From positions 150,557,266 through 150,621,265 of the forward strand of contig CM061142.1 in the NCBI GenBank assembly GCA_030789695.1: 64,000 nucleotides of DNA, given 5' to 3'. The notes under the pieces were generated by a model. That model worked only from the letters and a program-made list of their open reading frames with translations, was not told where the DNA came from and did no database searches. Shown here piece after piece: positions 20,733 through 63,560 of this stretch. A program made the translations under genes and the position numbers. The DNA comes from Scilla litardierei. Its lineage: Eukaryota; Streptophyta; Magnoliopsida; Asparagales; Asparagaceae. The first letter of the stretch is position 1; each line of letters begins with the position of its first letter.

Positions 20733-20905
20733 GCTGGTAGTCGACTCCCTAGGGGTGGTAGTCGATTCCCAGAGAATTTCAGCAGAAATACTGCATCCAA
20801 CTGGTAGTTGACTCCCTCCTCTAGAAGTCAACTCCCAGAGCAGTTTTCACTGAAACTCAGCTAGCAAAGATGTAATCAACTCCGGGGTGTTTGGAGGTTG
20901 ACTAC
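20733..20905. promoter_or_regulatory. Cluster of GTCGACT / TTGACT repeats upstream of the Copia TATA
   Basis: Five to six variants occur: GTAGTCGACTCCC (20737), GTAGTCGATTCCC, GTAGTTGACTCCC, AAGTCAACTCCC, AATCAACTCCG and GGTTGACTAC. AGTCGACT is a perfect palindrome, and the variants expose TTGAC, the core of the plant W-box. The right LTR has the same cluster at about 27667-27835 with different substitutions. Confidence 0.7.
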
Positions 20906-21639
20906 TAAGAAATAGAATAGCTAGCAAATGCTCTCAAGAGTTTTTAAAAGATTTGAAAACATTTAAAAATATTTTTCTTTGAAATCATTTTGTGTGTGTG
21001 TGCAACTTTTACTTTGGCTTTAACATAGTTCCTAAGAAACAAAACTCAACACTTAGACTAAGTCAAGTCTTCAAGAAGCTGATCAGATGATTAAAGTGAA
21101 TGCACGCTTCTCTTGAATTTGAGCCTCTTCTTCATTAAGCTTGAGCACTTGCATGAGCTTCATCATTAAGCTATACGTGAGCTTGATGTAGAGCTTACAG
21201 ATTCGTCTCCGTCTTTCGAGTGTGGTTGAGCTTCTTTGAAATATCCGTAAAAGCTATTGATCGCACAACCTGCACACTTAGGTTATTGTGTATTTTGGTG
21301 TGCTCATCATCAAAACCTACATAGGGGCAAGATTCGATTTCCCATCACTCTCCCCCTTTTTGATGATGACACCCAAATAAAAAATATATGAATAGATTAG
21401 CTCAAATAAAATACCGATAAGATAACTTACTCCCCCTGCTTAGATGAGGTACTCCCCCCTGCATCAAAGCCAGTTAGTATAACAAGATATTCATTCTCAT
21501 TTTTGCATTTTTACTCCTTTTCTCCCCCTTGTCATCAATCAAAAAGATGACAAATGAAAAACAACATAAATAAAAGGAGGTAAATCTATACTCAGTTCTT
21601 TTTCTCCCATGATACCCAAATATCGACGAAGCTTTGAAA

Positions 21640-22448
21640 ATACATCTTTTTGCAAAGGCTTCGTAAGTATTTCTGCAACTTAATGCTCATAGGGTACATA
21701 TTTAAGCTCAACATCCTTTTTGACACAGTGATCATCTATGAATTTGTGTCTAATATCAATGTGTTTTGTTCTAGGATGAAGAACAGAGTTTTTAGTGAGA
21801 TTAATAGTGCTTTTGTTATCACAATAAATTACACATGTAGATGTATTAATACCATAATCTACTAGAACTTGTCTCATCCAAAGCACTTGAGCACAAGCGA
21901 GTCCGACAGCTATATATTTTTCCTAGTTGATAGTGAGACTGAACTTTGGTTTTTGCTAAACCATGAAACAAGGGAATGTCCAAGAAAATGACATGTTCCA
22001 CTTGTACGTTTTCTAGTGGCTTTACAGCCAGCATAGTCTGAGTCACTTTATGAAGTTAATTCAAATGTGCTACCTTTGGGATAAAACAATCCAAAGTCAG
22101 AAGTGGTTTTAAGATATCTAAATATCTATTTTAATGTTTTAAGTTGTGATTTCCTAGGATCACCTTGAAATCAGCACATACACTAAACATTATATCGGGT
22201 CGGCTTGCAGTTAAGTATAGCAAAGAACCGATCATACCTCGATATGTTTTCTGATCAACTTTTTTACATGCCTCATCTTTGTCTAAAGAGGTTGATGTAG
22301 CCATTTGTATATTCTTCCCTGATGCAGTCTCCATTCCGAACCTTTTGATTAGGTCTTTGGCATACTTTGTTTGATGAATGACGATTGCTTCTTTTGCTTG
22401 TTTAATTTGTAGTCCGAGGAAGTATATAAGCTCGTCCATATGGCTCAT
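21640..22448 (-). pseudogene. Copia RNase H and RT C-terminal region
   Basis: Frames 22448-22131, 22046-21846 and 21886-21680 in turn encode the end of the reverse transcriptase and the RNase H. Visible motifs are LIYFLGLQIKQ, GMIGSLLYLTASRPDI and then VIYCDNKSTINLTKN with PRTKHIDIRHKFI, the conserved end of Copia RNase H. Frame changes and a deletion after SVCADF break the chain. In a working element this part removes RNA from the RNA-DNA hybrid. Confidence 0.85.
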
Positions 22449-23030
22449 TTTGAATTATTCATGCATTAGCTTAGCAAACACTCGACAAAGATCTTCATTA
22501 GTATATCCAAAAATAATATCGTCTACATATATTTGAATAAGAATGATATCATTATGAATTTTCTTAACAAATAATGTAGTATCTATTTTTCCAACATTAT
22601 ATCCTGAGTCGATTAAGAATTTTCTCAATCTTTCATACCAAGCTCTTGGAGCTTGTTTCAGGTCATATAATGCTTTATTTAGCTTATACACATGTTCAAT
22701 TTTCTTATCATGTTCAAAACCAGGGGGTTGTTTAACATAAACTTCCTCATTTATATAACCATTTAAGAATGCACTTTTTACATCCATTTGGTACAATTTA
22801 AAATTTTTATATGATGCAAATGCAAGTAACATCCTAATGGATTCTAGTCTAGCAACGGGGGAAAAGGTTTCATTGAAATCGATACCTTCTTCTTGTGAAT
22901 ATCCCTGTGCCACTAACCTTGCTTTATTTCTTACCACATTTCCGTCTTCATCTAGTTTGTTTAGGTATACCCATTTTGTGCCGATAACTGGACGATCTTC
23001 CGATCTGGGAACTAATTCCTATACCTGATT
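22449..23030 (-). pseudogene. Copia reverse transcriptase core
   Basis: The longest frame (22937-22455, 160 codons) shows [71 protein letters not shown] and the catalytic [13 protein letters not shown]. The preceding residues ([15 protein letters not shown]) continue upstream in frame, but an earlier stop interrupts the polyprotein. The wording of the motifs fits the SIRE/Maximus lineage. Confidence 0.92.
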
Positions 23031-25031: not shown

Positions 25032-25424
25032 AGTGTTGGATACTATGGGTGGCAAACAACACTAGAAGGGGGGTGTTGAATAGTGTTGTGCAAATAGTAA
25101 ACTTTTTCGTTCGTTAATAATAGCACAAATAAAAACCTTCTAATGTTGCTGAAGAAACCAAGTAGAGTAATCTACGCTTGGTTCTTAATGACATGCGTTT
25201 ATATTTTATATATTCACGCACGTCTTCTCCGTCATTTTTCGTTGTTTCGTATCTGTTCCTTTGTGTTTTGTAGTTCCTTTTCACTTTCCTTGTGTTTGTG
25301 TTCATTTGCACGACATTGGTAGCACAGGGGACATTTAGGGCCAACATCATGAGTCCTCAGAGCAATGGGAGGTGTCGCACGAGACCCCGAGAGCCATTCG
25401 TCAAGAAAAACCATGTATCAGCTC

Positions 25425-25769: not shown

Positions 25770-28295
25770 GGAGCTAGGTTTTTCGAGAAACGAGGATCCC
25801 CATTTTAAGATGTTTTAGGGATTTTTGGCTGCTTTGAATTAAACTCTAATTGTAAGTTCTTTGATCGTTCTTATATTTTGATATTGCGTTTATACTTCTA
25901 TTTGATAAAAAAACTATCGCATGATTTCCATTTTTATGGCTATATCCTGTTTTATTGCATTTCATACCATGTATAGTGAGTAGTTCTTCAATCTGGGACA
26001 TTGGTGGAAGCCCCTTCGTGGGTTCTTCCTAGAACGGCCATATGACTTGGGATCCGATTGGATCTAGGGATTTTGATGGTTACACGAGGGCGTTTCATTG
26101 TCATCGGTGGGAGAAAGACCGCCTTTGATCGTCGGGCCAGGAGGAAATAAAACGGGAGTTTGATTATCTAGCCACAGTTCACCCCCTAGCGTAGACATGA
26201 GTCCTTGCACGTGGGAACGGATTGTATGAAATATCGGGAGCAATCGTTGCGAGCTTAGTGCTCTCGGCGTCGGGCGGTGTTGGACATGGAAATGCCCACA
26301 GTCCAAACCCAGGTAGACCTAGCGTATCATCCTGGGCATCGACCGGAATATCGGGCCCATGGGACGCTAGGTACCACTATTAGAGGCAATGTCTCATCGC
26401 TAAACCCTAGCATTCGACCACATTCGTATCCTTAAGTCGTAATTGTGATAACCCATGATTAGGACGGAAGCCAAAGTCCTAGGTTACCTTTTTACCACTT
26501 ACATCTTTCTCATTAGTTTACTATCGTGACACCCAACCAGAGAATAGGCTAGCTCATCCACCGGGTGATCCGGTTCCCGAATGTTTACGAGTACAACACA
26601 CGCCTCCTCGTGATCGACCCCCAAGCCACACTTCGACACCGTGCGCTTGCGGTTTACAAATTCTAATTCTAGTATCACCGTCCCGATTTGCATGCCAAAC
26701 GAACATCATGTCACTTAATCAACAAGTTAATCTTAACAGGAAAGTTACGTGCAAGTTAAGATTACAAACAGATAATCTTTACACGCAAATAGATCTTTAC
26801 ACAGTAGAAATAAATAAATGAACTTTGCAATAATATAAGGAATAAATAACAAAGATACAAATGTTAGCAAATGAAATAAAATTCTTGTTCAACAAAGATA
26901 AACAATCACAGAAGAGACAAACGCAGAGACAAACGATTTTTATCTTGGTTCCCCACAACTTGGGTACGTCCAGTCCCCGACCAGTCCGGTACGAGATTTA
27001 ATCCACTATTGCATTACCATTACAATTACCTAACTTTACTTGTTAGGATTTTCCGATGATCTAGCGTTGACCAGGATTTCCAACCACTTAGACTTGTCTA
27101 GGATTTTCTCGTCCCTTACAACAAAGGGGAATCCACAAATAAAACAAAGTTTCCAACTCACCACAATAATTGGTGGAGATTGGATTACACCCAAAATTCT
27201 ATAGCCAAAGTAAATATAACAATTGTGCGTTACGTGGCTAAAAGAATTTAAATATATCTTTTAGATCACATAATGAATTTGATTTTATTCGTTGTGATCT
27301 TAGATATATAGCTTTTCAAAATCCTTTTAATAGATGAAAAATTGAAAAACAAGGATTTAAAAAAACTTTTAAAAATAGCCAAAATAAATATGCAGATCTC
27401 AAAATAATATCAGAAAAATAAGAGTTGAGATCAGAGAATATAAAGCAGAAATTGGCTATTGGCGTTGAGAGCGAATGAGAGCAATGCGATCAGAATTTTG
27501 CACAAGGAATAGAGAGATTAGATTAGTATGTAGAATGATCTCAATGAGGGCTCTATTTATAGAGTTTCATAAGAATTTTGAATTTCAAAAAGAATTGACT
27601 TTCAGTCCGAATAGATAAGGAAGTGGAGTGAAATCAGGAAGCAGATTCGTTAAAGAAAAATGACAGCTGGTAGTCGACTCCGTAGGGGTGGTAGCCAACT
27701 CCCAAATAATTTCAGTAGAAATTCTGCTTCCAGCTGGCAGTCGACTCCCACCTCTAGTTGTCGACTCGCAGAGCAGTTTTCACTGAAACTCAGCTAGCAA
27801 AGATGTAATCAATCCCGGGGTGTTTGTAGGTTGACTATTAAGATATAGAATAGCTAGCAAATGCTCTCAAGAGTTTTTAAAAGATTTGAAAACATTTAAA
27901 AACATTTTGCTTCGAAATCATTTTGTGTGTGTGCAATTTTTACTTTGGCTTTAACATAGTTCCTAAGAAACAAAACTCACACACCTAGACTAAGACGAGT
28001 CTTCAAGAAGCTGACAGATGATTAAAGTGAATGCACGCTTCTCTTGAATTTGAGCCTCTTCTTCATTAAGCTTGGACACTTGCAAGAGCTTCATCATTGA
28101 GCTATACTTGTGCTTGATGTAGAGCTTGCAGATTCGTCTTCGTCTTCCGAGTGTGGTTGAGCTTCTTCGGAATATACGTAAAAGCTATTGTTCGTACAAC
28201 CTGCACACTTACGTTATAGTGTAATTAGTACACTAACATCATTTGGTGTGCTCATCATCAAAACCTACTTAGGGGTGGGATTCGATTTCCCATCA

Positions 28296-28300
28296 CTATG
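28296..28300. repeat. Target-site duplication CTATG, right copy
   Basis: Exact match to 19630-19634. LINE ORF1 resumes immediately afterwards. Confidence 0.95.
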
Positions 28301-32188: not shown

Positions 32189-33918
32189 TGCGCACCCCTG
32201 ACGCACCCGAAACCTACACCTAGCTTCCACCGTGCGGTGTCACGATCGCCAGGCATGGTATGGCCCCTAGATGTCAATTCCGGGCTCTATCCGCATGCGG
32301 ACGATGTCAAATTATAGTATAAATGATGTCGAATCCCACAAGGACGGTGATAGTGTAATTGAGTTCTCAGCTTACTTTTATATCTCGAAGTGAGATAGCT
32401 ATCAGGTTGAGAGAATTGGTTTTGGTATCATTCTTGATTTAATAATAAAAAGGACTAGGGCGTTAGGGATCACCGCTAAGACCGTCGGGGATCGACGTTG
32501 GAATAGAATCCTTATGTTGCATTAGGGTTAGGGGATTAATCTCCCAATTCGTACCACTCTCGTGGGTTAGAATTGCAAGGTATTTCGGTGGCTCTCAATG
32601 ACACAATAGCGGTAGCCGCCAACATAGCATTATAGTTCATTGGGGATCCCCTCAAGGCATGAGCCGTGCATGGTCACGAGCCTTGAATGGATCCACCGAT
32701 TTCCCTATTCGAATCCTAGGGATACCCCTTTAGTACATCAATTTCACATATCGTGGGCATAATCTCAGTATGGGTTATCCTAGGGATTCGGTAGGATCGA
32801 CCGAAATACTCCCCTATATTCCTAATTCAACATATAGATCCAGATCTACGTCTTTCCCCTAGCGTCTTAGGGCTAATCCATCAACCCTAGAAAAGAATAC
32901 TCACTCATGACGTTATCGACGAATAAAAACACAATTTTTCGGAGAGAAAACATCATGGCAAATTGATAGAAAATAGATTGAAAAACTTACAGCGAGTAAT
33001 AGATCTCAAAGAAAAACCAAGATTCCAAGAACGCGAGAATAGCAAACAAACTTCCAATAAATTTCGATCTAATAATCTTTAAAAAGGTAATCTAGATTTA
33101 ACAAGTTTTTCCCTCTAATCTCCTCTCCAAAATTAATTCAAAAAAACTCAGAAAATGAATCACCACCAACGCTGTCGCAGCTTCCCTCACTTCACTCCCC
33201 CAAACATGCAACAATTGCTCCCAAAATCTTTCCAAAAATGGCCTTCAGCATCGTCGACCGAGTGGGTAACTCGGTCGAGCAGTGGGTTGCTCGGTCGGTC
33301 GCTTGGTCCAAGCATATGTACTACTCAACCGAGCATGACAGTAAATCGCGCTCCTCCAAAATCATCACTCTGTCTGCACGGGCCGAGTCAGCTCTGCTCG
33401 ATCGAGCAGATATCTGACTCGGTCGCTGAAGAAGCTGCTCGGGTCGTGCAAGAGGCTACTTCATCTTGGAAGGTTGGCGCTGCTCGACCGAGCACATAGG
33501 TGCTCGGTCCGAGCAATCCGTGTAGTAGTCGCTTCTTCTCCATTTGCATCTGCTCGACCGAGCAGCTGCTCTGCTCGGTCGAGTCGCCTGGGAAACTCTT
33601 TCTAAATCTTCTGGATCTTTGGGAGCTTCTAGAGCTCCTCCGCGCCTCTCGTTCTCTCCTCCACTCCTCCCATGGCTCTCAAAACTCGGTGAACTCCTGT
33701 AGATCTTCGCCAACGAGCTCACGGTCGCGTCAGATGTGTCCATATCCAAATCGGGTCCCAAATCGCTCCAAAATTCCTGAAAATTCATAAAACACTACGA
33801 AACTCGAATATAACGTTAGAAATGCGATATCGTAGGAAAATACGGGATTTGAATTCGAAAATGGCATGGAATGCGATGTCATGATGCTATGAAAAAGATA
33901 TAAAATATGGACACATCA
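32189..33918 (-). repeat. LTR of the Athila-like element
   Basis: The 3918 side is firm: 'atggacacatca' followed by the polypurine tract. The LINE side is estimated: LINE-like sequence fades between 32165 and 32200, and a TG at 32189 ('tgcgcacccctgacgcacc') is the best start. No second copy in the window allows confirmation. The phrase 'gaatcccacaaggacggtga' near 32330 is typical of this lineage. Confidence 0.7.
33252..33585. promoter_or_regulatory. Cluster of CTCGGTCGAG palindromes in Athila-like LTR
   Basis: About eleven variants of TGCTCGGTCGAGCA / TGCTCGACCGAGCA are packed into 330 bp. TCTGCTCGATCGAGCAGA (33393-33410) is a perfect 18-bp palindrome. TGCTCGGTCCGAGCA (33501-33515) is perfect around a single central T. 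The flanks are not GC-rich. Confidence 0.8.
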
Positions 33919-34988
33919 AAATCCCCCAAGCTTACCTCTTACTCGTCCTCGAGGAAGACGAATACTAGGCACGCCAGGAGAAAAACAAAAAGAAATAAAA
34001 ATAAAAACAAGAATAAAAGAGAATGGAAATGGATGGAGGGTGCTAAGGTTGTTCGGTCAGATCTTAGGCCTAAGCAGTATATCACGATGCTCTGAATATC
34101 AAAAATACATGCTAATGGAAATTTCAAGTTTTACAGATCATATGTTTAGCATGCAATACAGACAAAAGATAGGGATCTACTGAAATAATGCCATCAACTC
34201 ATATCAATCTCATGCAGTCCATAGAGTCTAGTATAAAAGGAGTTGGAAATGCACTTTTCAATCACAGATACACATGGAGCATATAGAAATCACACAGCAT
34301 GCAGTAGAGAATAGAAAGAATCATGCTATTCAATTATTCATTTCGAGTCACGAAAAATCTCCAAAAACTAAAGTGTTTCGTAAAGTTTAAGTATTATCAA
34401 ATCTTCCCGGTATGCACCGTCTCCACTCTATTGTCATACCCACTCATGTGATCAGTTAGTTCACCCCTCAAGCTTAGCTTGAGGCATCGCATCTAGGAAT
34501 AGGATATGGAAAAATTTTTTCCCAGTATATGTGATAGCTTCTAATGAAAGGATATAAAACGATTTTATTCTTTCTTTTCTTTCTTTTTTCTTTTTCATAT
34601 ATACACACACACACATCTTTTCCATTTTTTTCATTTAGAAGCTATACTTTTTCCATTTGAGATTTTTGGGAAGTGAGATGCGGTAAGGGTAGTTGTAGGG
34701 GTGAAACCAACTGATATTTAGAGAACTGCAAAGATATGTGGAGAAGGAAAATAATAAATCTCTCAGTTCACTCATAAGAGGTGCACAACAGTTTAATACG
34801 ATAATACTCTAACTAAACTCATAACTACCATGGATATTTTCATTCATCTAGATGAATACTGAAAAAGCATGCAGTAATAGGCACAATGGCAACAAGCTAG
34901 CAAATAGAAGTGAATAAGATATACAGCAGATGCTCCAAGTGTTCAAGTGATGCATAAACCTAGCTGCATTACCCAACATAGCGCATAT
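33919..34988 (-). other. 3' untranslated part of the Athila-like element
   Basis: Noncoding DNA between polypurine tract and N1 insertion. Contains (CTTT)n and (CA)n-like runs at 34560-34615. Three copies of 'tcccccaagct' exist in this 3' part: one at the LTR (33922), and two across N1 at 53614 and 53783. Confidence 0.6.
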
Positions 34989-37434
34989 TGAAGGGTTTTC
35001 TAGGACCCTTAGGGCACAAAAAATCTATTTCCGTCCTAAGTCGGATGGAACATAGACATAAAATGCACAGCGAAAGAATAAACAAGTTAATCTAATTATC
35101 ATGTAGTTAAACAATTTAACTTAGCCCTAAGGAACCAGAACCTCTTAGCCAGGATCTCTGTCAACTCGGGGTGGATCTGACCACCCCAAGAGGGATCTAA
35201 ACTACTGCGAATAATTAAAACAAAAGCTTATAAAACACGTACCCAGAATCTCAACCCTAGGGAAGGGCACGATGTTCCGCAACGTCTTCCGAGCCGCTCC
35301 CCGTCCTACGTCGAGCCGCTCCTCGAACCGCTCCGCATCCCGAGGCGAGCAATCCTCGTATCGCCGAGCCAACCACGCACCAAAGAAAGTTTCACTCGAG
35401 TGAAAGCCTTCGCCAAGATTTCGGATCCAAACCCGAACTCCTTCGTGGCTTTGCTAGAGCCCTCAGGAGTAAGGCAGAAATAGAGATTATTAATTTAAGC
35501 CTAGATCCGAGCGTGCTCGAACATTTACGGGAGCCGGTCAGATCTGGAGCTTGGGACAAGTTTCGAGGAGGGGAGCATACCCCTATTTATATAGGAGGCT
35601 GACTGCTTCCATTTACTCAAAATCCGATGTGGAATTCAATTTAGTTTGCCTTTCACAAAGGCCAAACTTCCGTGAATTTTAACTCCCTCACCGTTGAGCT
35701 TCATGATTGATACAACCTATCAATACGAAGGGTGTTCAACGGTGAACTCATAGGAAAAAACGGCTCGTCAATCTGAGTCCGTTTGACCCTCCAATTGATC
35801 GTCCAAAGATCAGCCAAATATCATATTTTCGCAACCAAAACCAGCCGTCAATACAATCTGCCTAGGGTTCGCAATCCTAAGCGTGTGGGGCCCACCAGCG
35901 GACCCCGCTGCCTTGTTTTGCGCATGCGCAAGCCCACTGGGGCACTGACAGCATGCGCCCCAACGGGCGCGTGCTAGACATTCGCCCATTGGGGCGCATG
36001 CTGACGCACGCACCGCAGAAACTTGGGGTGCCTGCAAATAAAAGGGCCCTACCCTTTGGGCTGGGCCAATTAAGGCCCGTTTTTTTTGTGTTTCTCAAAC
36101 AGCAAAAAGCACATGGTCCTGATTTATTTGGGCTTCTATTTAAACACTTTAAATAGACTTAATGTACTCGTTTGGACTCCGTTCCTGACGCGGTTTGAAC
36201 CTGTGTCTAGAGCGGGACGATCTCGTCATGCAGGTAACCCTTTCCTTGCGTTTATTTAACTAAAGATAGTCTTAAAAAATTTTAAACACATTTAATCTCT
36301 TTTTGCATCATATGCAAATTAGTCCCTATCTAAGCTTAAATTGTCATTTGCATCAAAATGCAATTTCCTTTTCCTTTGCATCAAATGCAAATTATTCTCC
36401 CTAACTAATTTCTACCTATTACTAGACGAAGGTCGCACTCTGTGTGAGACCCTACAGCCTGACCCTTACAACAGGTTGGGCTCGAAGCCCTATACGGCAG
36501 TGACCACGAGCAGTGGTTGCCGTCCCTGCTTCAGAATCATAATTATGTGGTTGAATCATCGACATGAGTATTGTCGGGACCACCCTGACTGTGTCCATGA
36601 TGAATTCTGTAGTTTTAGTCTCTTCGTCTAAACTATGTCGTGTAGATCAAGTCTTGGGTACGGTCAAACTGTTAACCCCAATAACTTGACTCCGGTTAGT
36701 TTCTATCGATCTTTAGTTAACTAATGTTGGACTTCTTTCAACATACTCTGATCAGAGATTTTACTAAAGACTGAACTACCTCTACGACACTAACTCCCAT
36801 TGACCGGGAGAAATGAATCCTCTCTTGGTCATTACTCTCCTCGTACGCTTCAAGTGACACCCGATCAAAGACCTTTCGACAGGCCTAGCCTCAAAGCTAG
36901 GTCAGTGATCTAAGTGGCACCGTTCACGCACAGGTTCGTAAAATGACCTCAAGTCAAAAGACCAACTAGCCTATCATCACTGAGAGTTATCATTGACAGA
37001 TTGGTTAATATAACCATATGATAACTCTTGTGGATCATTCAGTCAACTCATTCTCTAATGATCACCTATGTATTGTCTTCAACTTTGCCAAGTCAAATGA
37101 TCATGTTATCATCGCCACCGCTAAACAGTGAAGACTAAGACACAATGCTCTATCCTATGCTTCGATATCATTGTCTCGAAACATCTACGACTACGAACCC
37201 TTTTAGAATTATGCTACATACGGTCAAACATTTCGCCATGATCGAGATACTCATCTCGATACATGTTTGTCCTTGCGTAAAGTCTCAGGACTTTACCTAA
37301 GTTAATATATAATGTTAACTACATTATAAAATAACTTAGATAAATTATTACCAAACAGCTTACTGTTATTTTGAACAAGACGTTTGTGCTATTCACACAG
37401 AGATAAATAGCCTCGAGTGCATCATCTTTCTACA
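34989..37434 (-). repeat. N1 left LTR (2446 bp)
   Basis: Bounded by TGAAGGG and TTTCTACA. A TATA box (minus strand TATATAAATAGG) lies at 35594-35583. A cluster of GCATGC-type palindromes lies upstream of it at 35915-36005. Downstream parts match the N1 right LTR and both N2 LTRs. Confidence 0.9.
35915..36005. promoter_or_regulatory. GCGCATGC palindromes in N1 left LTR
   Basis: TTGCGCATGCGCAA (35918-35931) is a perfect 14-bp palindrome. GCATGCGCCCCAA (35951-35963) and TTGGGGCGCATGC (35989-36001) are perfect reverse complements. The corresponding part of the N1 right LTR (51900-51965) has only fragments of them, and N2 has unrelated palindromes there. Confidence 0.75.
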
Positions 37435-37524
37435 TCTCCCACTTGCACTCAGGCCTATTTATTTCGGTATCTTATACCGTTTTTACACATAAGTCTTTCT
37501 AGACTTCATGTGGTAGAGCCTTCG
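37435..37524 (-). other. N1 internal region, left piece
   Basis: Starts with the polypurine tract complement 'tctcccacttgcac' and matches N2 at 58305 onward until the N3 insertion at 37525. Confidence 0.85.
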
Positions 37525-37863
37525 TGTCACGCCCCGCTTCCCTAAAATGGAGGCGAGACGTGAGAAGGTCCGCTCAGACTTGGAGCTGTGAGGCTTCAGT
37601 CTGTAAAGCGTCTGGATTTAAACCGGTAGAGGTCCCTGCAAGTGCGATACGGAACAAAAATAATAATAAAGAAAGAGACATAAATAACCAATCTCAGAAT
37701 GTCCAAAAATAAGTTCCAACATCACAGAAAAGCCACCAGGCTGGAAGAAAAGAGTCTAAAGGCCCAAGCATAGCCAACAAAGTCAAACGTACAGAAAACA
37801 AAGTAATGGTGCTACGCACCGACAACTAACAGCAACCAAAAGCAAAGCAACTCAGAACAGTCT

Positions 37864-38076
37864 CTAAGACTGGTCTCCGATGTCCTCAAACTCCTCGTCA
37901 AACGTAGGCTCAGGCTCAGTGTCAGTGAACACCTCGTCCTCAGCAACGGTCTCTGGCTCAGGGTCTAACATGTGACACCCAAAAGAGAGAGGGACACATG
38001 TCAGCAAGTCTACAAAGACTTGTGCAAGGAAACTGAAAGTAAAGCAAATCAACCTAGCAGTTCTAACATGATGCAA
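37864..38076 (-). other. Conserved 70-codon acidic open frame in N3 LTR
   Basis: Starts MHHVRTARLICF, hydrophobic in the middle, and ends in an acidic tail (DPEPETVAEDEVFTD then FDEEFEDIGDQ). The twin at 44328-44540 in the other LTR differs by only a few residues. Preservation may simply reflect LTR similarity. No family recognised. Confidence 0.25.
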
Positions 38077-43987: not shown

Positions 43988-46855
43988 TGTCATGCTTCAC
44001 TTCCCTAAAATGGAGGCGAGACGTGAGAAGGTCTGCTCAGACTTGGAGCTGTGAGGCTCCAGTCTGTAAAGCGTCTGGATTTAAACCGGGTAGAGGTCCC
44101 TGCAAGTGCGATACAGAACAAAAATAATAATAAAGAAAGAGACATAAATAACCAATCTCAGAATGTCCAAAAATAAGTCCCAACATCACAGAAAAGCCAC
44201 CAGGCTGGAAGAAAAGAGTCTAAAGGCCCAAGCATGGCCAACAAAGTCAAACGTATAGAAAACAAAGTAATGGTGCTACGCACCGACAACTAACAGCAAC
44301 CAAAAGCAAAGCAACTCAGAACAGTCTCTAATACTGGTCTCCGATGTCCTCAAACTCCTCGTCAAACGTAGGCTCAGGCTCAGCGTCAGTGAACACCTCG
44401 TCCTCAGCAACGGTCTCTGGCTCAGGGTCTAACATGTGACACCCAAAAGAGAGAGGGACACATGTCAGCAAGTCTACAAAGACTTGTGCAAGGAAACTGA
44501 AAGTAAAGCAAAGCAACCTAGCAGTTCTAGCATGATGCAAATGACATGGCAGTTAAAGTATAAGTGCAACAGGTAAAGTAAAGTACAATAAGCATCTAGC
44601 ATGGCATGGCAAGAGTAGCAAACTACTAACATTCACAAGTCACGTTTTCATGTCGTTCACAGAGTTCACGCCTTACAGCTGAAGTGGCTGTACGGGCACA
44701 CTTCTACGCTGAGTGGTCACTCAACCCTACCCCTCCACGTGTATCGAGCCAGGGCTTTACCCCCGAACATGAATGCTCGCTTCTGGATCACGAGCCAGGA
44801 AGTGTTTTTTGGCATAAGGTTATGCCTGCAACGCAGGTGCCTAGCCTGAACAAGCAAGTACAAGTATAGTAGCGTGTGCTACGAATGCAACAATCAGACA
44901 TGGATGGCTTAACATGGCAAGCTGTAATTTGAATGCATTCAGATAAGGAATTTAAACATGGCAGTTACAAATACTTGGATGACATGGCAGCATGAACAAA
45001 ACAAGTAAAAGGGGTTGGGTCTAGCTTCGTTGTCAAGCTAGATCAAGTGAGGTGACGGATCTAGTTTCATTGTCAAACTAGATCAAATAGGCGTCTAGGC
45101 AGCTATCATTTCACTGCCTAGTCTCTTTTATGCTACGGTACAAAAGTGGCCTAAAACATGGCCTAGACAAGCAACGGGCAAGTTTCACTTGCCTGAATTC
45201 AAACGTCTGAAAAACACCGTCCACAGAGTCCAAAGTCACAAACAACCTACGTGCACAAGTCCACCAGCCTACATTCCCAATTTAAATTATCTTAATTAGT
45301 GATTCTAAAACATTTAAAAACATCAATTTTAATCTTGTTTAACAGGCTGTGGTTGGGGGTCCTAGGGGTACAAAACGTTACCTCAACACGACGCGAAAGC
45401 TACACTGGCATCGGGTAGCGACGCCAGGGGTTGGAATATAAGAACGCGCTCCTAGTCCAATTTCCAGATCAGATTCCTCGCTCGAATAGTTTGGGCAGCA
45501 ACCAGATCAACGAACCAAGATTCCAATGCTAGCACGTGCGACGAAGGGCCACGACGTGTCGCAACGTTGTAATCGGCAAAACAACGGAGAGGAAACACTT
45601 GGGTGGGACCCCCATCAGTTCTAGGGGTCAATGGGGGACCCACAACACCTTTGGAGAACTTGGGGGGCCCACGGAGGCAAGCGGTGCGACGGATGCGGGG
45701 TTGCAAAGAAAGTCGCTCGGTCAGACCGAGCCGCTGCGAGGATTTCTCTCGGTCAGACCGAGAGAGCACAGCGGTCGGTCGGGCGCAGCGCTGCGGGGAT
45801 GCGGGCTCTCGGTCGCAGCGGGCCGCTGCGAGGAATTCCTTCGGTCGGGCGCTTGGGAGCGAGGGTTACAACGCGCGGGGTTGCAACGGAGCGAGGGTTT
45901 GGTGCGGAGCGGGGGAGCGGGTCGGTCAGACCGAGCGGGGGCGTCGGTCGCTGCGGGGATTGCAACGTTGCAGTTGCAACGTTACGGAGCGGAGCGGCGA
46001 TGCGGGAAAATCTCTCGGTCAGACCGAGAGGGGCTCTCGGTCGTAGCGGGGAGCGGGGGTTGCAACGATGCGGCGGGCGACTGGGTGCGGAGCGGAGCGG
46101 TGATGCGGGGCGGGGCCTCGGTCAGACCGAGGAAAAACAAGGGAAAACGTCGGTTGGTGCGGGGGTGCAGCTGCGACGAATGTCGTATGTTGCAATGCGA
46201 AAGTTTGGGGGGTTTTGTGACGGCTAGGGCTTGTTTGCTTGAGTGAAATGGGTATCCTAAGCCTCCTATATATAGTGTAGGTGGGTTTGACCAAGTCTAG
46301 GGTCTAATTTGAATTAAAATTGCTTTTTAATCAATTTTAAACCGAAAATATCACCCACACTATATCTCAAGCAATAGGGGTGCTGCCAAGGGGCTAGGAT
46401 TTGGGTCAAAAATGTTTTGAAGAATTATAATCTCATAGAAATTATATTTGGCTAAAAATACTTGAAAACTTAGTAGTTAAAAATATTATTAGCTTTGCTA
46501 AAAATGTAAAATAGATCAAATGCAATCCAAAAATTTTGAAATAAATATTGGGGTGATCGGGACGACGGGAGAAAGAAAACTAATAAGACGGATCTCAATT
46601 TCGACGCCGAGTGACGAAACTAAAAATAGAAACGTCTCACGTCAAAAGTGAAAATCACAACCTCTCTTCGAATAAGATCAAATCATGGGAGAACGACCCG
46701 AGAAATATCGTTCCAAATTAGTGCCACAATTTAATACTCTCAGAGACGAACACAACGACATATCACACCGTAGTGTTCAAAAACAAACAAAGTCTAAAAC
46801 AAATACGTGCACAGCACGTGCACGAAGAAGGTACGATCGGAAAGCGACCGTTACA
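43988..46855 (-). repeat. N3 right LTR
   Basis: Matches the left LTR at nearly all positions. Five perfect TCGGTCAGACCGA repeats at 45717, 45749, 45922, 46015 and 46118. TATA (minus strand) at about 46275-46264. Confidence 0.95.
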
Positions 46856-50947: not shown

Positions 50948-53231
50948 TGAAGGGTTTTCTAGGACCCTTAAGGCACAAAAACTCTATTCCCGTCCTAAGT
51001 CGGACGGAACATAGACATAAAATGCAAAGCAGAAGAATAAACAAGTTAATCTAATTAACATGCAGTTAAACAATTTTCCTTAGCCCTAAGGAACCAGACC
51101 CTCTTAGCCAGGATCTCTGCCAACTCGGGGTGGATCTGACCACCCCAAGAGGGATCTAAACTACTGTGAATAATTAAAACAAAAGCTTATAAAACATGTA
51201 CCCAGAATCTCAACCCTAGGGCGGTCAAGATGTTCTGCACTGTCTTCCGAGCCGCTCCTCGTCCCACGTCGAGCCACTCCTTGAACCGCTCTGCATCCAG
51301 AGGCGAGCAATCCCCGTATTGCCGAGCCAACCATGCTCCGAAGAAATTTTCATGTGAGTGAAAGCCTTTGCCAAGATTTCGGATCCGAATCCGAACTCCT
51401 TCGTGGCTTTGCTAGAGTCCTCAGGAGTAATGCAGAAATATAACGAGATAGAGAATATTAATTTAAGCCTAGATCCGAGCGTGCTCCAACATTTACGGGA
51501 GTTGCTCAGCTCTGGAGCTTGGGACGATTTTTGAGGAGGGGAGCAGACCCCTATTTATATAGGATGCTGACTGCTCCCCTTTACTCCAAATCCGATGTGG
51601 GACTAAATTTGGAGTTTAATCAATTCAATTTAGTTTGCCTTTCACAAAGGACAATCTTCCGTGAATTTTAACTCCCTCATTGTTGAGCTTCATGATTGAT
51701 ACAACCTATCAATACGAAGGGTGTTCAACGGTGAACATATAGGAAAAAATGGCTCGTCAATCCGAGTCCGTTTGACCCTCCAATTAATCGTCCAAAGATC
51801 AGCCCAATATCACATTTTCATTACCAAAACCAGCCGTCAATAAAATCTGCCTAGGGTTCGCAACCCTAGGCGTGTGGGGCCCACCAGCGGGCCCCGCTGC
51901 CTTGTTTTGTGCATGCGCCAGCCCACTGGGGCGCTGACAGCACGCGGTTTGAACTCGTTTGGACTCGTTTGGACTCTGTTTCTGACGCGGTTTGAACCTG
52001 CGTCTAGAGCGGGACGATCCCGTCATGCAGGTAACCTTTTCCTTGCATTTATTTAATTAAATATAGTTTTAAACAATTTAAGACACATTTAATCCCTTTT
52101 TGCATCATATGCAAATTAGTCCCTATCTAAGCTTAAATTGTTATTTGCATCAAATTGCAATTTCATCCTCTTTTGCATCAAATGCAAATTATTCTCCCTA
52201 ACTAATTTCTACCTATTACTAGACGAAGGTCGCACTTTGTGTGAGACCCTACAGCCTGACTCTTACAACAGGTTGGGCTCGAAGCCCTATACGGCAGTGA
52301 CCACGAGCAGTGGTTGCCGTCCCTGCTTCAGAATCATAATTATGTGGTTGACTCATCGACATGAGTATTGTTGGGACCACCCTGACTGTGTCCGTGACAA
52401 ATTCTGCAGTTTTAGTCTCTTCGTCTAAACTATGTAGTGTAGATCAAGTCTAGCGTACGGTCAAACTGTCAATCCCAATAACTTGACTCCGGTTAGTTTC
52501 TATCGATCTTTAGTCAACTAATGTTGGACTTCTTTCAACATACTCTGATAAGAGATTTTACTAAAGACTGAACTAACTCTACGACACTAACTCCCATTGA
52601 CCGGGAGAGACGAATCCTCTCTTGGTTACTACCCTCCTCGTACGCTTCAAGTGACACCCGATCAAAGACCTTTCGACAGGCCTAGCCTCGAAGCTAGGTC
52701 AATGATCTAAGTGGCACCGTTCACGCATAGGTTCGTAAAATGACCTCAAGTCAAAAGACCAACTAGCCTATCTTCACTGGGAGTTATCATTGACAGATTG
52801 GTCAATATAACCATATGATAACTCTTGTGGATTGTTCAGTGAACTCATTCTCTAATGAGCACCTGTGTCTCGTCTTCAACTTCGCCAAGTCAAACGATCA
52901 TGAGATCATCGCCACCGCTAAACGGTGAAGACTAAGACACAATGGTCTATCTAATGTTTCGATATCCTTATCTCGAAACATCTACGACCACGAACCCTTT
53001 TAGACTTATGCTACAGACGGTCAAACATTTCTCCATGATCGAGATACTCATCTCGATACATGTTTGACCTTGCATAAAGTCTCAGGACTTTACCTAAGTT
53101 AATATCTAATGTTAACTACATTATAAAATAACTTAGATAAATTATTACCATACAGCTTACTGTTATTTCGAACAAGACGTTTGTGCTATTCACACAGAGA
53201 TAAATAGCCTCGAGGGCATCATCTTTCTACA
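50948..53231 (-). repeat. N1 right LTR (2284 bp)
   Basis: Starts TGAAGGG after the primer site and ends CTACA before CATAC. TATA (minus strand) at 51562-51552. It lacks about 160 bp of the palindrome region present in the left LTR (near 35940-36180). Confidence 0.9.
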
Positions 53232-55641: not shown

Positions 55642-58304
55642 TGAAGGGAATTGGCGGTACCCTTAGGGCACAAAAACTCTAGTCCCGTCCTAAGTCGGAC
55701 GGAACATAGACAGGAAAATCGATTGCAGCGGAAAAACTTGTTAATCTAATTAACATGCAGTTTAAAACAATTTTAACTTAGCCCTAAGGTCCAAGACCCT
55801 TAGCCAAGATCTATGCCAACTTGGGATGGATCTGACCATCCCAAGAAGGATCTAACCTACTGCGATTAAATTAAACTAATGCTTAATTAAACACATACCC
55901 GGAATCTCAGCCCTAGAGCAGGCAAGATGTTCCGCGCCATCTTCCGAGCTGCTCCCATCTCACGCCGAGCCGCTCCTCGAACCGCTCCCCGAACCGCTCC
56001 TTGAACCGCTCCACAAACCGAGGCGATCAATCCCGTGTCGCCGAGCCAACCAACCGTCGAAGAAAGTTTCACGCGAGTGAAACCTCCGCCTAGATTTTGG
56101 ATCTGAATCCGAACTCCTTTGCGGCTTTGCTAGAGCCCTCAAGAGTAAGGCAGAAATTTTAGGGAGATAGAAGAAATATTAATTTAAGCTTAGATCCGAG
56201 CGTGCTCCAACATTTACGAGAGCCGCTCAGATCTAGAGCTTGGGACGAGTTTTGAGGAGGAGAGCAGACCCTTATTTATATAGGCGGCGGACTCTCCCCT
56301 TTTCTCAAAATCCGATGTGGGGCTATTAATTTGAGTTGATTAAAATCAAGTTAGTTTGCACTTCACAAAGTGCAAACTTCCGTGAATTTTAACTCACTCA
56401 CCGTTGAACTTCAGGATTGATACAACCTATCAATTCGAAGGGTGTTCAACGGTGAACGCATAGGAAAAAACCGTTCGTCAATCGGAGTTCGTTTGACCCT
56501 CCAATTGAGTGTCCAAAGATCAGCCCAAGGCTAGTTTTTCATAAAAACTGAGCCGTCAAATCTGTTTTGCCCTAGGGCCAGATTTTCTGCACAGGCGGGA
56601 CACACCAGACCAACTAGGTGAGCCCAGACCAGGCCAGACGCCTGGTCTGGGCGCACCCAGGCTGGTGCACCCAGCCTGGGCGCCTGGCCCAGGCCAGGGC
56701 GCATAGCCCGGGCCTGGGCCAGGCGCCCAGGCGCTCAGGGCGCCTGGGCGACCCGCCTGGGCCAGCGCCCAGGCGCCCAAGGCACCTGGGCGGGCCCGCC
56801 TGGGCCTGGCCCAGGCGTCCAGCGCCTGGGCCAGCGCCCAGGCACCCAGGGCGCCTGGGCCGGCCCGCCTGGGCGCAGGCCCAAGCGCCCAGTGCCTGGG
56901 CCTGAGCCCAGGCGCCTGGGCTGGCGACCTGGCTCAGCCAGGTCTGGCCAGGCGCCCAGGCCAGACCTAGTCTGGCCTGGCTCAGCCTGGTCTGACCCGG
57001 TCTGATCTGTTTGGCTATTTTGGCTCTAACTTGAGCATCTGGCGTCCGATTTGGACGCCGTTCAAACCTGGGTCTAGACCGGGACATTCCCGTCTTACCT
57101 GAGAACTTTTCCTTGCATTTATATTATTAAATATCGTTTTAAACAATTTAAAACACATTTAATCACTTTTGCATCAAATGCAAATTAGTCCCTATCTAAG
57201 CTTAAATTATCCTATTGCATCAAATGCAATTATTCCATCCCTTTGCATCAAATGCAAATTATTCTCCCTAACTAATTTCTACCTATTACTAGACGAAGAA
57301 TCACACTCTGTGAGAGACCCTACAGCCTGACCCTTACAACAGGTTGGTCTCGAAGCCCTATACGGCAGTGACCACGAGCATTGGTTGCCGTCCCTGCTTC
57401 AGGAATCATCATTATGTGGTTAACTCATTGACATGAGTATTGTTGGGACCACCCTGACTGTTTCCGTGATGAATTCCGCAGTTATAGTCTCTTCGTCTTA
57501 ACTATGTCGTGTAGATCAAGTCTAGGGTACGGTCAAACTGTCAACACCAATAACTTGACTTCGGTTAGTTTCTATCGATCTTTAGTCAATTAATGTTGGA
57601 CTTCTTCCAACATACTCTGCGCAGAGATTATACTAAAGACCGAACTAACTCTACGACACTAACTCCCATTGACCGGGAGAGACGAATCCTCTCTTGGTCA
57701 TTACTCACCTCGTATGTTTCAAGTGACACCCAATCAAAAGACCTTTTGACAGGCCTTGCCTCGAAGCTAGGTCAGTGATCTAAGTGGCACCGTTCACGCA
57801 CAGGTTCGTAAAATGACCTCAAGTCAAAAGACCAACCGGCCTATCATCACTAAGAGTTATCATTGACAGATTGGTCAATGTAACCATATGATAACTCTTG
57901 TGGATTGTTCAGTGAACTCATTCTCTAATGAGCACCTGTGTCTCGTCTCCGACTTCGCCAAGTCGAACGATCATGAGATCATTGTCACCGCTTAACGGTG
58001 AAGACTAAGACACAATGGTCTATCCGATGTTTCGATATCCTTGTCTCGAAACATCTACGACCACGAACCCTTTTAGACTTATGCTACAGACAGTCAAACA
58101 TTTCTCCCTGATTGAGATACTCATCTCGATACCTGTTTGACCTTGCATAAAGTCTCAGGACTTTACCTAAGTTAATATCAAATGTTATCTACATTATAAA
58201 ATAACTTAGATAAATCATTACCAAACAGCTTACTGTTATTTCGAATAAGATGTTTGTGCTATTCACACAGAGATAAATAGCCTGGAGGGCATTATTCTCC
58301 TACA
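55642..58304 (-). repeat. N2 left LTR (2663 bp)
   Basis: Bounded by TGAAGGG and CTCCTACA. TATA (minus strand CCTATATAAATAAG) at 56284-56271. A GC-rich palindrome array lies upstream of it at 56600-57000. Confidence 0.92.
56600..57000. promoter_or_regulatory. CCCAGGCGCCTGGG palindrome array, N2 left LTR
   Basis: About 400 bp built almost entirely from GCCTGGGC and GCCCAGGC units. AGCCCAGGCGCCTGGGCT at 56905-56922 is a perfect 18-bp palindrome. Long open frames on both strands here result from the lack of A and T, not from coding. Confidence 0.85.
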
Positions 58305-61300: not shown

Positions 61301-62230
61301 ATGTATGCCATAGACTAAACAGCTTTTATTAACAACTAATTAATCCTATCAACTAGTTGAATCCTTAAATTCAAAATTTTAGAATTTGTTTAATAACTTT
61401 TATTAAGTCCTTATCAACTATAAGGTTCACGAGCTATCCTAATCGTTATTAGGATTTTAATAAATTTTATTAACAACGCTAAAAGCGAAGTCCTTTAATG
61501 AAAATTAATTATAACAATTAGAATTAAAAAATTCATTAAAGGGACTACCCTAATCAGGAATTAGGTCATGAAGCATTGTTAATGTTTTATTAAAACATAG
61601 TATGTCATTAAAATTCAATTAATAAATTTTAATCATTTTTAATGGCTAACCTGAAAGGGTTGTCTTGTGTTAACAAACAAGGGACAAAAGGAACTAGCCA
61701 TTAAAATAAAGCTACACTAATTTTATCGCATAAAATAAAGTGTACAACTACTTAACAATTAAATAGACTAAAGTTTATCGCATAAACAATTTTAGACTTT
61801 TAAAATCAGTTTTAAAAATATCTTATAAATTTAAAACATCACTTTAAAAATTTTCCATGTTCAAAAATTTATCACATACAATTTTTAAACATCTAAAACA
61901 TTTTAAACTTATCGCATAAATTTAAAGCCTTAAAATCAATTTTAAAATTTCCATGCTTAAAAATTTATCATATAAAAATTTTTTAGGCATCAAAAATAAC
62001 TTTAAACTTTTAAAGATTTAAAATTAGTTTTAAAATTAATACATAAATTTTAAAAACGTCATTTAAAAATTTTCATGTCCAAAAATTTATCACATATAAT
62101 TTTGAACATCAAAAACATTTTATAATTATCTTATTACTTTAAAAAAATTTAAAAGTATTTAAAAAGCATTAACAGGTTTAATGAAATCGCAGTGCTAGAT
62201 CGACTACGCAAACCTAGGCTCTGATACCAC
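58305..62230 (-). other. N2 internal region, noncoding
   Basis: Collinear with N1 internal DNA, and it shows the empty N3 site at about 58391-58397. The CTTGAGTGTAGCTCAAC stem-loop motif occurs at 60062, 60203, 60657 and 61025. 'gctcggtgtattcacgaca' occurs at 60845 and 60930. A TTTAAAA-rich degenerate repeat spans 61755-62165 next to the primer site (62215-62230). Confidence 0.85.
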
Positions 62231-63189
62231 TGAAGGGAATTGGCGGTACCCTTAGGGCACAAAAACTCTAGTCCCATCCTAAGTCGGACGGAACATAGAC
62301 AGGAAAATCGATTGCAGCGGAAAAACTTGTTAATCTAATTAATATGCAGTTTAAAACAATTTTAACTTAGCCCTAAGGTTCAAGACCCTTAGCCAAGATC
62401 TATGCCAACTTGGGATGGATCTGACCATCCCAAGAAGGATCTAACCTACTGCGATTAAATTAAACTAATGCTTAATTAAACACATACCCGGAATCTCAGC
62501 CCTGGAGTAGGCGAGATGTTCTGTGCCGTCTTCCGAGCTGCTCCCCGTCTCACGCCCAGCCGCTCCTCGAACCGCTCCCCGAACCGCTCCGCAAACCGAG
62601 GCGATCAATCCCGTGTCGCCGAGCCAACCAACCGCCGAAGAAAGTTTCACGCAAGTGAAACCTCCGCCTAGATTTCGGATCCGAATCCGAACTCCTTTGC
62701 GGCTTTGCTAGAGCCCTCAAGAGTAAGGCAGAAATTTTAGGGAGATAGAAGAAATATTAATTTAAGCTTAGATCCGAGCGTGCTCCAACATTTACGAGAG
62801 CCGCTCAAATCTAGAGCTTGGGACGAGTTTTGAGGAGGAGAGCAGACCCCTATTTATATAGGCGGCGGACTCTCCCCTTTTCTCAAAATTCGATGTGGGA
62901 CTATTAATTTGAGTTGATTAAAATCAAGTTAGTTTGCACTTCACAAAGTGCAAACTTCCGTGAATTTTAACTCACTCACCGTTGAACTTTAGGATTGATA
63001 CAGCCTATCAATTCGAAGGGTGTTCAACGGTGAATGCATAGGAAAAAACCGTTCGTCAATCGGAGTTCGTTTGACCCTCCAATTGAGTGTCCAAAGATCA
63101 GCCCAAGGCTAGTTTTTCATAAAAACTGAGTCGTCAAATCTGTTTTGCCCTAGGGCCAGATTTTCTGCACAGGCGGGACCCACCAGACC

Positions 63190-63560
63190 AACTGGGTGAG
63201 CCCAGACCAGGCTGGACGCCTGGTCTGGGCGTACCCAGGCTGGTGCACGCAGCCAGGGTGCCTGGCCCAGGCCAGGGCGCCTGGCCCGGGCCTGGGCCAG
63301 GTGCCCGGGCGCCTGGGCTGGCCCGCCTGGGCCTGGCCCTGGCGCCCAGTGCCTGGGCCAGCGCCCAGGCACCCAGGGCGCCTGGGCGGGCCCGCCTGGG
63401 CGCAGGCCCAGGCACCCAGCGCCTGGGCCTGAGCCCAGGCGCCTGGGCCTGAGCCCAGGCGCCTGGGCTGGCGACCTGGGTCAGCCAGGTCTGGCCAGGC
63501 GCCCAGGCCAGACCTAGTCTGGCCTGGGTCAGCCTGGTCTGACCCGGTCTAATCTGTTTG
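63190..63560. promoter_or_regulatory. CCCAGGCGCCTGGG palindrome array, N2 right LTR
   Basis: Same type of array as at 56600-57000 but with different unit order. The AGCCCAGGCGCCTGGG unit occurs twice in tandem (63432 and 63452) where the left LTR has one. The perfect 18-bp palindrome is at 63452-63469. Confidence 0.85.

What the first reader, a model, noticed from the sequence alone, without database searches (positions are those of the whole stretch)
20733..63560. Every LTR family here carries its own cluster of short perfect palindromes
Six unrelated sequence motifs, each palindromic or nearly so, are packed in 90-430 bp clusters within the LTRs of the Copia element (AGTCGACT), the solo LTR (CCGATCGG), the Athila-like element (CTCGATCGAG), N3 (TCGGTCAGACCGA), N1 (GCGCATGCGC) and N2 (CCCAGGCGCCTGGG). 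The motifs differ between families but the architecture is the same. In Copia, the solo LTR, N1 and N2 the cluster sits 50-700 bp upstream of the TATA box. In N3 it is downstream of the TATA, and in the Athila-like LTR no TATA was fixed. I know of no standard LTR feature with this description. Inference: convergent arrays of dimer-binding sites that set element expression, or hairpin and methylation targets that recruit silencing.
Basis: partly seen in the sequence, partly recalled or inferred. Interest (0 to 1): 0.85.

Follow-up and report, generated by a model that had tools for sequence, protein, structure and literature searches.

The report
Palindrome-box arrays in plant retrotransposon promoters
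Several unrelated families of plant jumping genes carry, mostly near the switch that turns them on, a tight cluster of short mirror-image DNA boxes, most likely docking sites for paired regulatory proteins; such boxes were already known in one lineage, but here they occur in other lineages too and whole clusters can be exchanged for others.

Summary
Five unrelated LTR families in the window (N1 and N2 are one family) carry a 0.1-0.5 kb cluster of repeated dyad-symmetric boxes. Exact palindromes alone give little excess in the Copia and N1 clusters; counted as inverted repeats the clusters stand out, weakly for Copia. The feature is not unknown: palindromic "repeated motif" boxes upstream of the TATA box were described in Sirevirus (Ty1/copia) LTRs in 2010, and the Copia element here looks like a Sirevirus. 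New here: the same layout in an Athila (Ty3/gypsy) LTR and in families with largely non-coding interiors. Genome copies show boxes better conserved than spacers (N3, Athila, solo; Copia borderline) with no clear excess of compensatory change between half-sites, which favours protein-dimer sites over hairpin selection. In the N1/N2 family whole arrays are exchanged on a conserved LTR backbone while dyad symmetry is kept. Of 20 random 2-kb pieces of this 3.7-Gb genome 5 pass the array test (0 of 100 shuffles), 4 of them with one repeated box. What binds the boxes was not tested; a site recurring in N1/N2 arrays matches the TCP class I consensus.

The parts
19634..21349 (-). left LTR of a Sirevirus-like Copia element; boxes around AGTCGACT at 20736-20905; TATA at 20622-20628
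   Evidence: self-alignment, TATA scan, degenerate boxes, 20 genome copies
26714..28297 (-). right Copia LTR, main part (short part 25033-25188, split by the solo LTR); boxes 27669-27840; TATA 27555
21350..21529 (-). three polypurine copies AGGGGGAG (CTCCCCCT on + at 21350, 21430, 21522), a Sirevirus hallmark
   Evidence: hallmark from PMC2829016
25189..26708 (+). solo LTR TGACATG..CATGTCA with 5-bp target duplication CTTAA; array of CCGATCGG boxes 25427-25710; TATA 25763
   Evidence: 20 genome copies
32400..33923 (-). Athila-like LTR (low end approximate); CTCGRYCGAG boxes 33252-33585
   Evidence: Pfam ATHILA ORF-1 at 55243-55572; 29 copies including the window's own
34989..37434 (-). N1 left LTR; exchangeable array module about 35840-36160; TATA 35585; TCP-like GTGGGGCCCAC at 35885
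   Evidence: 20 related genome copies
50948..53231 (-). N1 right LTR; array mostly deleted (remnant 51860-51950)
37520..40399 (-). N3 LTR (low-coordinate copy); array of CTCGGTCAGACCGAG boxes 39240-39710; symmetric CTATATATAG at 39803-39812
   Evidence: 20 genome pieces
43985..46855 (-). N3 LTR (high-coordinate copy); array 45700-46140; CTATATATAG at 46266
55642..58303 (-). N2 LTR; array of GCCTGGGC / GCCCAGGC boxes 56590-57000; TATA 56274
   Evidence: 30 LTR copies including the window's two
62231..64000 (-). second N2 LTR, cut by the window end; array 63170-63560; TATA 62852

Best explanation
Each array is a cluster of cis-regulatory boxes in or next to the LTR promoter, of the same kind as the repeated-motif boxes of Sireviruses. 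Each box is a dyad because a protein dimer binds it; clustering gives cooperative binding near the core promoter and sets when the element is transcribed (or kept unsilenced). Arrays gain and lose direct repeat units and can be exchanged on the same LTR backbone, so families differ in motif but keep the layout. Shown here: repeated dyad boxes, their placement, conservation of boxes over spacers in three families (borderline in a fourth), half-site mutation without clear compensation, different arrays on a conserved backbone. Inferred: protein binding, the identity of any protein, effect on transcription or silencing.
For: Box columns are more conserved than spacers among copies: N3 0.962 v 0.877 (circular-shift p=0.002), Athila 0.913 v 0.858 (0.011), solo 0.929 v 0.905 (0.038), Copia 0.954 v 0.923 (0.072), although boxes hold more CpG in Athila, solo and Copia. 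Half-sites: N3 0 compensated, 77 broken of 721 pair cells; Athila 8 compensated of 1391 against about 4.6 expected from independent change; solo 10 compensated, 155 broken. Placement about 50-310 bp upstream of TATA in Copia, solo, N1, N2 and 51-84 bp in the random pieces L145, L157, L162. N2: neighbouring LTR part 96.8% identical, array 78% with 15% gaps. N1-type arrays share a median of 0.8% of 11-mers, yet 17 of 20 exceed all 60 shuffles in hairpin score. GGNCCCAC, the published TCP class I site (PMC6892148, one passage), is in 19 of 20 N1-type and 28 of 30 N2 pieces, 55 and 68 sites against 2 and 12 mirror-image sites. Precedent in Sireviruses.
Against: No binding, expression or methylation data. 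The window's Copia and N1 clusters show little excess in exact palindromes. By Mann-Whitney the box-spacer difference is not significant for solo (p=0.31) or Copia (p=0.4, with L136 included). Boxes were defined on the window's copy, which favours columns that look like the motif, and some copies are two LTRs of one element. In N1-type arrays the sequence turns over almost wholly while dyads persist, which a single conserved binding protein does not explain. N3's array lies downstream of its TATA on the orientation read from the polypurine tract; Athila has no canonical TATA; random piece L150, with the same box as L145, has no TATA near its array. The TCP-like site is absent from the Athila, solo and Copia pieces, where in Copia the mirror control has 9.
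Confidence: 0.62

Rival explanations
1. The dyads are kept because the RNA or single-stranded DNA folds into hairpins: U3 is in the 3' end of the genomic RNA, where a row of stem-loops could serve packaging, dimerisation or 3'-end stability, or feed Dicer.
For: Folding energies below shuffles on both strands, z from -3.0 to -17.6 in nine of ten cluster copies and -1.4 to -1.8 in the remnant N1R; the sense strand has the more negative z in 7 of 10 copies (60 shuffles each). Pairing reaches well beyond the motif cores. N1-type arrays keep inverted repeats, many with loops of 0-8 nt, while sequence turns over. Maize Copia LTRs concentrate miRNA-like hairpins with more small RNA (PMC10760457, passages).
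Against: No clear excess of compensatory changes: none in N3, 8 against about 4.6 expected in Athila, 10 against 155 broken in solo; in Athila mismatches that would be G-U in the sense RNA (51) do not exceed the reverse (67); own flanks pair no better than swapped flanks (N3 p=0.075, solo 0.60, Athila 0.79; N1/N2 hairpins p 0.32-1); in N2 and one N3 copy the antisense strand has the more negative z.
Confidence: 0.17
2. A mutational by-product: palindromes arise and are perfected by fold-back synthesis or template switching during reverse transcription, with no function.
For: N1-type arrays hold many different near-perfect inverted repeats with short loops; arrays differ between LTRs of one element at about twice the flank rate in three of four pairs.
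Against: 0 of 91 distinct clean insertions or deletions between N2 or N3 copies score as inverted duplications; 13 are direct, 12 fit both, 66 neither. Box conservation in several families. N1-type copies, where the turnover is greatest, were not put to this test.
Confidence: 0.1
3. The boxes are targets of element-encoded anti-silencing proteins, as VANC proteins bind family-specific motif arrays in VANDAL transposons, so motif and protein co-evolve family by family.
For: Family-specific clustered motifs in non-coding DNA with gain and loss of repeat units, as described for VANC targets (PMC5735166, passages); different arrays on related backbones.
Against: No such protein was found: the stop-free pieces of at least 75 residues in the N1, N2 and N3 interiors are 76-92 residues long and the 8 searched have no Pfam match; the five Copia pieces searched show Pol-type domains only. 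The terms palindrom and inverted do not occur in the main text of PMC5735166.
Confidence: 0.11

Closest known systems
Sirevirus repeated-motif (RM) boxes (Bousios et al. 2010, PMC2829016)
   Same: Palindromic boxes in many copies per LTR, motif particular to the element, CpG islands, just upstream of the TATA box; Osr8 motif CGGTCAGACCG is contained in the N3 box CTCGGTCAGACCGAG.
   Different: Reported as Sirevirus-specific among Ty1/copia; here also in an Athila (gypsy) LTR and in families with largely non-coding interiors. Of the window's repeated boxes only N3's has the CGG-CCG core. Array exchange on one backbone is not in the parts read.
Palindromic cis-regions of maize Sirevirus LTRs and their small RNAs (Bousios et al. 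2016, cited in PMC10760457)
   Same: Clusters of palindromes with strong predicted structure in the LTR cis-region.
   Different: The 2016 paper is not held; known only through citing text. In maize Ty3 elements generally lack an obvious hairpin peak (PMC10760457, passages).
VANC target arrays of VANDAL transposons (PMC5735166, passages)
   Same: Family-specific, clustered, fast-evolving short motifs in non-coding DNA of a transposon.
   Different: DNA transposon with a known element-encoded binder; palindromes not mentioned in its main text.
TCP class I sites (GGNCCCAC; PMC6892148, one passage)
   Same: The site, often as an inverted pair, recurs in nearly all N1/N2 pieces although the rest of the array varies.
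   Different: Sequence match only; absent from the Athila, solo and Copia pieces.

Membership tests
Sirevirus RM boxes | repeated box with dyad symmetry | tested here: met
   solo, Athila, N3, N2; Copia by degenerate boxes and genome copies
Sirevirus RM boxes | at least eight copies per element | tested here: inconclusive
   per LTR copy: N2 6-17 half boxes in 16 anchored copies, Athila 5-10 in 28 of 29, solo 6-9 in 20 of 21, N3 3-6 in 19 of 20 fetched pieces, Copia 3-5 in 19 of 20
Sirevirus RM boxes | CGG-CCG core | tested here: not met
   present in N3 boxes though not above shuffles (p=0.08 and 0.26); solo has CCG-CGG (p=0.006); Copia none. The 2010 paper itself exempts Tnd-1
Sirevirus RM boxes | cluster shortly upstream of a TATA box | tested here: inconclusive
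   met loosely in Copia, solo, N1, N2 and random pieces L145, L157, L162; none near in Athila or L150; N3 downstream
Sirevirus RM boxes | CpG island over the boxes | tested here: inconclusive
   CpG observed/expected 1.20 N3, 1.07 Athila, 1.02 solo, 0.73 N1, 0.44 N2, 0.30 Copia; first 19 kb of the window 0.37
Sirevirus (Copia element only) | several polypurine tracts AGGGGGAG near the 3' LTR | tested here: met
   three copies within 180 bp
Sirevirus (Copia element only) | PBS TATCAGAGC and Copia-type Pol | tested here: met
   GCTCTGATA at 25020; RVT_2, gag_pre-integrs
Athila lineage (33-34 kb LTR) | ATHILA ORF-1 domain in the same element | tested here: inconclusive
   PF03078 E=1.9e-7 at 55243-55572; that stretch and the LTR are separated by the inserted N1 element, so one element is inferred
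VANC-like anti-silencing targets | binding by an element-encoded protein that removes methylation | not testable with these tools
   no binding or methylation data
TCP class I target | GGNCCCAC site over a mirror control | tested here: met
   N1-type 55 v 2, N2 68 v 12, N3 24 v 0 (7 of 20 pieces); Athila, solo 0 v 0, Copia 0 v 9; binding itself not testable

The most novel reading that the evidence does not exclude
The box array is an exchangeable promoter cassette shared by copia- and gypsy-type LTR elements of this genome: dyad symmetry of the boxes is under selection while their sequence is replaced wholesale, family by family and within one family, because each array answers to a different dimeric factor (host or element-encoded) in a race with silencing.
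Probability: 0.25. Interest if true: 0.85.

Novelty: new variant of a known kind. Interest (0 to 1): 0.55.

Why it matters
The 2010 paper left open what reads the palindromic boxes and asked for reporter tests. Here one genome offers several unrelated families, and within N1/N2 nearly identical LTR backbones with different arrays, so binding, expression and methylation can be compared with the rest of the LTR held almost constant. If the layout is general to gypsy-type LTRs, it is a common rule of plant retrotransposon promoters rather than a Sirevirus peculiarity.

Tried and rejected
Perfect-palindrome counting as the measure was given up: it misses degenerate boxes, and its best window is a microsatellite. 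Fold-back mutation was tested in N2 and N3 and found without support. Selection for base pairing was tested by pair accounting and by swapping flanks and found without clear support; one of the seven solo sites was set one base off (checked). The first Athila conservation test used loci in mixed orientation and stopped on an error; it is discarded and replaced. Solo and Athila LTRs share no clear similarity (best E 0.087). A genome count of CCGACTAGTTNNNNAACTAGTCGG was asked six times and not answered. Literature: nine searches answered (one query was rejected for a short term) in an open-access library; the 2016 Sirevirus paper is not held. Searches listed no title on such arrays in gypsy LTRs, but most listed papers were not opened, so no claim is made that they are unreported. 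Passages of PMC12844716, PMC6911290, PMC10794571 and PMC6019531 were also seen and are not relied on. A protein search with the Copia reverse transcriptase (best 120 of 7508 listed) gave plant and mostly unnamed hits and did not settle the lineage. Families of N1, N2, N3 and solo remain open. The species was not identified.
Full report
What the window holds. The window is plant DNA rich in nested LTR retrotransposons. Self-alignment and boundaries read from the sequence give: a Copia element on the minus strand whose right LTR is split by a solo LTR (25189-26708, plus strand, target duplication CTTAA); a LINE at about 28298-32399 (RVT_1 on one piece, E=1.1e-6, just under Pfam's cut-off); an Athila-like LTR (33923 downward) whose interior is inferred to continue beyond the inserted N1 element, with a Pfam ATHILA ORF-1 hit at 55243-55572; the N1 element (LTRs 34989-37434 and 50948-53231) with N3 (LTRs 37520-40399 and 43985-46855) nested beside its left LTR; and N2 (LTRs 55642-58303 and 62231 to the window end). 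N1 and N2 share LTR flanks and interiors (interiors 86% identical), so they are one family. Their interiors and N3's have no stop-free piece above 92 residues, and the 8 pieces searched have no Pfam match. The Copia element has three copies of the polypurine tract AGGGGGAG within 180 bp, a tRNA-Met type primer site and Copia Pol domains, which matches the Sirevirus description in PMC2829016 (passages).

Is the observation above chance. Exact motif counts are low for some families. Inside the clusters, perfect palindromes exceed shuffles clearly in N3, for 12 bp and more in solo and Athila, partly in N2, and little in Copia and N1. Taking the best palindromic 8-mer in any 350 bp, with the choice of motif included in the null, gives p=0.01 for solo, Athila and N2, 0.03-0.04 for N3, and nothing for Copia and N1; of 19 control segments three also reached p=0.01, all with AT-rich motifs. 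Inverted repeats (arm 8-27, loop 0-19) show the feature better: z from 4.8 to 16 for solo, Athila and both copies of N1, N3 and N2, 3.5 and -0.3 for the two Copia LTRs. In the whole window 37 of 56 hairpins with arm G+C of at least 0.4 lie in the 3.0 kb of clusters, which were, however, chosen for palindromes. By 2-kb tiles, 7 of 32 in the window have three or more such hairpins within 400 bp; six hold these arrays and one a tandem repeat at 18.6-19.1 kb.

Copies elsewhere in the genome. The genome (G000, 3.68 Gb) could be searched. CCCAGGCGCCTGGG occurs at 1878 places, its mirror image at 0. Copies were chosen by similarity to the LTR next to the array, not by the array itself; only the best 40 candidates per search are scored, and some copies are two LTRs of one element. 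Athila: 29 of 30 loci usable (one rich in N; one is the window's own); 5-10 boxes in 28, 1 in one. N3: 22 sequences (20 fetched, 2 from the window), 103 boxes with up to 3 mismatches, one piece (L067) without an array. Solo: 21 sequences, 6-9 near-exact CCGATCGG in 20, 3 in one, mirror control 0. Copia: 20 fetched, 3-5 near-exact AGTCGACT in 19, none in L136, mirror control 0-2; 14 of 20 have 3-4 exact boxes where the window's LTRs have 1 and 2, so the window's copies are decayed. N2: 16 of 30 loci could be cut between fixed anchors, arrays 348-539 bp, 6-17 half boxes, mirror control 0; the other 14 were left out because an anchor was not found.

Selection on boxes. Mean frequency of the commonest base, box against spacer: N3 0.962 v 0.877, Athila 0.913 v 0.858, solo 0.929 v 0.905, Copia 0.954 v 0.923; circular-shift p 0.002, 0.011, 0.038, 0.072 (N3 without L067, L069 and L072, Copia without L136). 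Mann-Whitney p for the same contrast was 7e-9 for N3, 9e-4 for Athila, 0.31 for solo and 0.4 for Copia with L136. In Athila, solo and Copia boxes hold more CpG than spacers, which should speed decay, so the test is conservative there; in N3 the share is about equal. Boxes were defined on the window copy, a mild bias in favour.

Pairing or protein. If the fold were selected, changes on one arm should be matched on the other. N3: 721 pair cells, 644 unchanged, 77 broken, 0 compensated. Athila: 1391 cells, 1214 unchanged, 169 not Watson-Crick, 8 compensated against about 4.6 expected; two of the five dyads overlap. Solo: 982 unchanged, 155 broken, 10 compensated; no expectation was computed. Flanks beyond the core pair no better with their own partner than with another site's (N3 both copies p=0.075, solo 0.60, Athila 0.79; N1/N2 hairpin A p=0.32, n=13, others n=8 or fewer). 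Pairing does extend beyond the short core, which fits a longer half-site, such as TCAMCCGAT in solo. Folding energies are low on both strands; the sense strand has the more negative z in 7 of 10 copies, most clearly in Copia, the antisense in N2 and one N3 copy. So the evidence leans to protein sites without excluding structure.

Array exchange. N1 and N2 LTRs are 71-96% identical per 100 bp outside the array zone and 46-66% inside it. Among 16 N2 copies the neighbouring LTR part is 96.8% identical on average and the array 78% with 15% gaps; a control LTR part of 400 bp is 92% identical with 5% gaps; L038 and L060 are 99.6% identical beside and 71.6% inside the array. Twenty N1-related copies (flank 86-91% identical to the window; 20 of 40 listed were fetched) have arrays that share a median 0.8% of 11-mers (173 of 190 pairs under 5%), yet 17 of 20 exceed all 60 shuffles in hairpin score and the other three are reached by one shuffle each. 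Insertions and deletions between copies of N2 and N3 do not score as inverted duplications (0 of 91; 13 direct, 12 both, 66 neither; solo had none to test). Between the two LTRs of one element the array has about twice the substitutions of the flanks in Copia, N3 and N2 (p 0.006, 0.001, 0.004) but not in N1; for transitions at G or C sites alone no pair differs significantly.

How general. Twenty random 2-kb positions on seven large contigs (not all large ones) were drawn by script; 12 were fetched and the other 8. Five of 20 have at least three G+C-rich hairpins within 400 bp, against 0 of 100 shuffles. Four of the five are arrays of one repeated box: CCGACTAGTT-4 nt-AACTAGTCGG (L145, L150), CTCGACCGAG (L160, as in the window's Athila), and CAGTCGACTG (L162); L161 is mixed. 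L157, not among the five, has two boxes of the first kind at its edge. A TATA box follows the last box by 53 bp in L145, 51 in L157 and 84 in L162; L150 has none near, and L160's array runs to the piece end. L157 and L162 are homologous downstream of the TATA (68.8% over 702 bp) and carry different arrays: a second case of different arrays on a related backbone, though older.

A candidate reader. GGNCCCAC, given as the TCP class I site in PMC6892148 (one passage), occurs in 19 of 20 N1-type pieces (55 sites, mirror control 2) and 28 of 30 N2 pieces (68, control 12; two pieces are the window's own); in 7 of 20 N3 pieces (24, control 0; most pieces start beyond the site seen in the window); in none of the Athila, solo and Copia pieces (Copia mirror control 9); in 3 of 20 random pieces. 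In N1 it is the near-palindrome GTGGGGCCCAC. This is a sequence match, not a binding result.

Comparison with what is known. PMC2829016 (section 9 in full, other passages) describes palindromic RM boxes in 13 Sireviruses, different from element to element, forming CpG islands, with a TATA box on average 37 bp beyond, and calls them Sirevirus-specific against classic Ty1/copia elements. The Copia element here fits the Sirevirus description. N3's box contains the Osr8 motif. Athila is a gypsy lineage (recalled), and N1, N2 and N3 are not shown to be Sireviruses and do not all meet the CGG-CCG core; they work like RM boxes, and membership is not claimed. PMC10760457 (passages) reports hairpins concentrated in LTRs of maize Copia and generally no obvious peak in Ty3. 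VANC targets (PMC5735166, passages) are an analogue for fast-changing family-specific arrays.

Verdict. A real and, in this genome, common promoter feature of a known kind, extended to other lineages, with array exchange as the most interesting part. The proposed mechanism, dimer-binding boxes, rests on conservation and on the lack of clear compensation; it has not been tested at the bench.

Noticed in passing
window 18584-19105: three tandem copies of a 170-bp unit with nested inverted repeats, outside any LTR
   Followed up: no
window 2930-2980; L146 and L148: TA microsatellite followed by CCCGTGCCCGCGGGCACGG; similar hairpins turn up in two random pieces, so this may be the end of another repeat family
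   Followed up: partly
window 28298-32399: degraded LINE with a reverse transcriptase fragment on the plus strand
   Followed up: partly
window 63517-63889: 188-bp direct tandem duplication beside the N2 array in one LTR only
   Followed up: no
window 39493-39519, 45961-45983: a second, unrelated palindrome TGCAACGTTGCA is repeated inside the N3 array
   Followed up: partly
N1-type pieces such as L085, L087: recurring hairpin CTATTTAAA-cac-TTTAAATAG downstream of the variable array
   Followed up: partly
L136: Copia copy in which the box array is missing and other sequence stands in its place
   Followed up: no
L007 (C13:150637584): an Athila-family LTR lies about 46.7 kb from the window's own and could be the other LTR of the same element
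   Followed up: no
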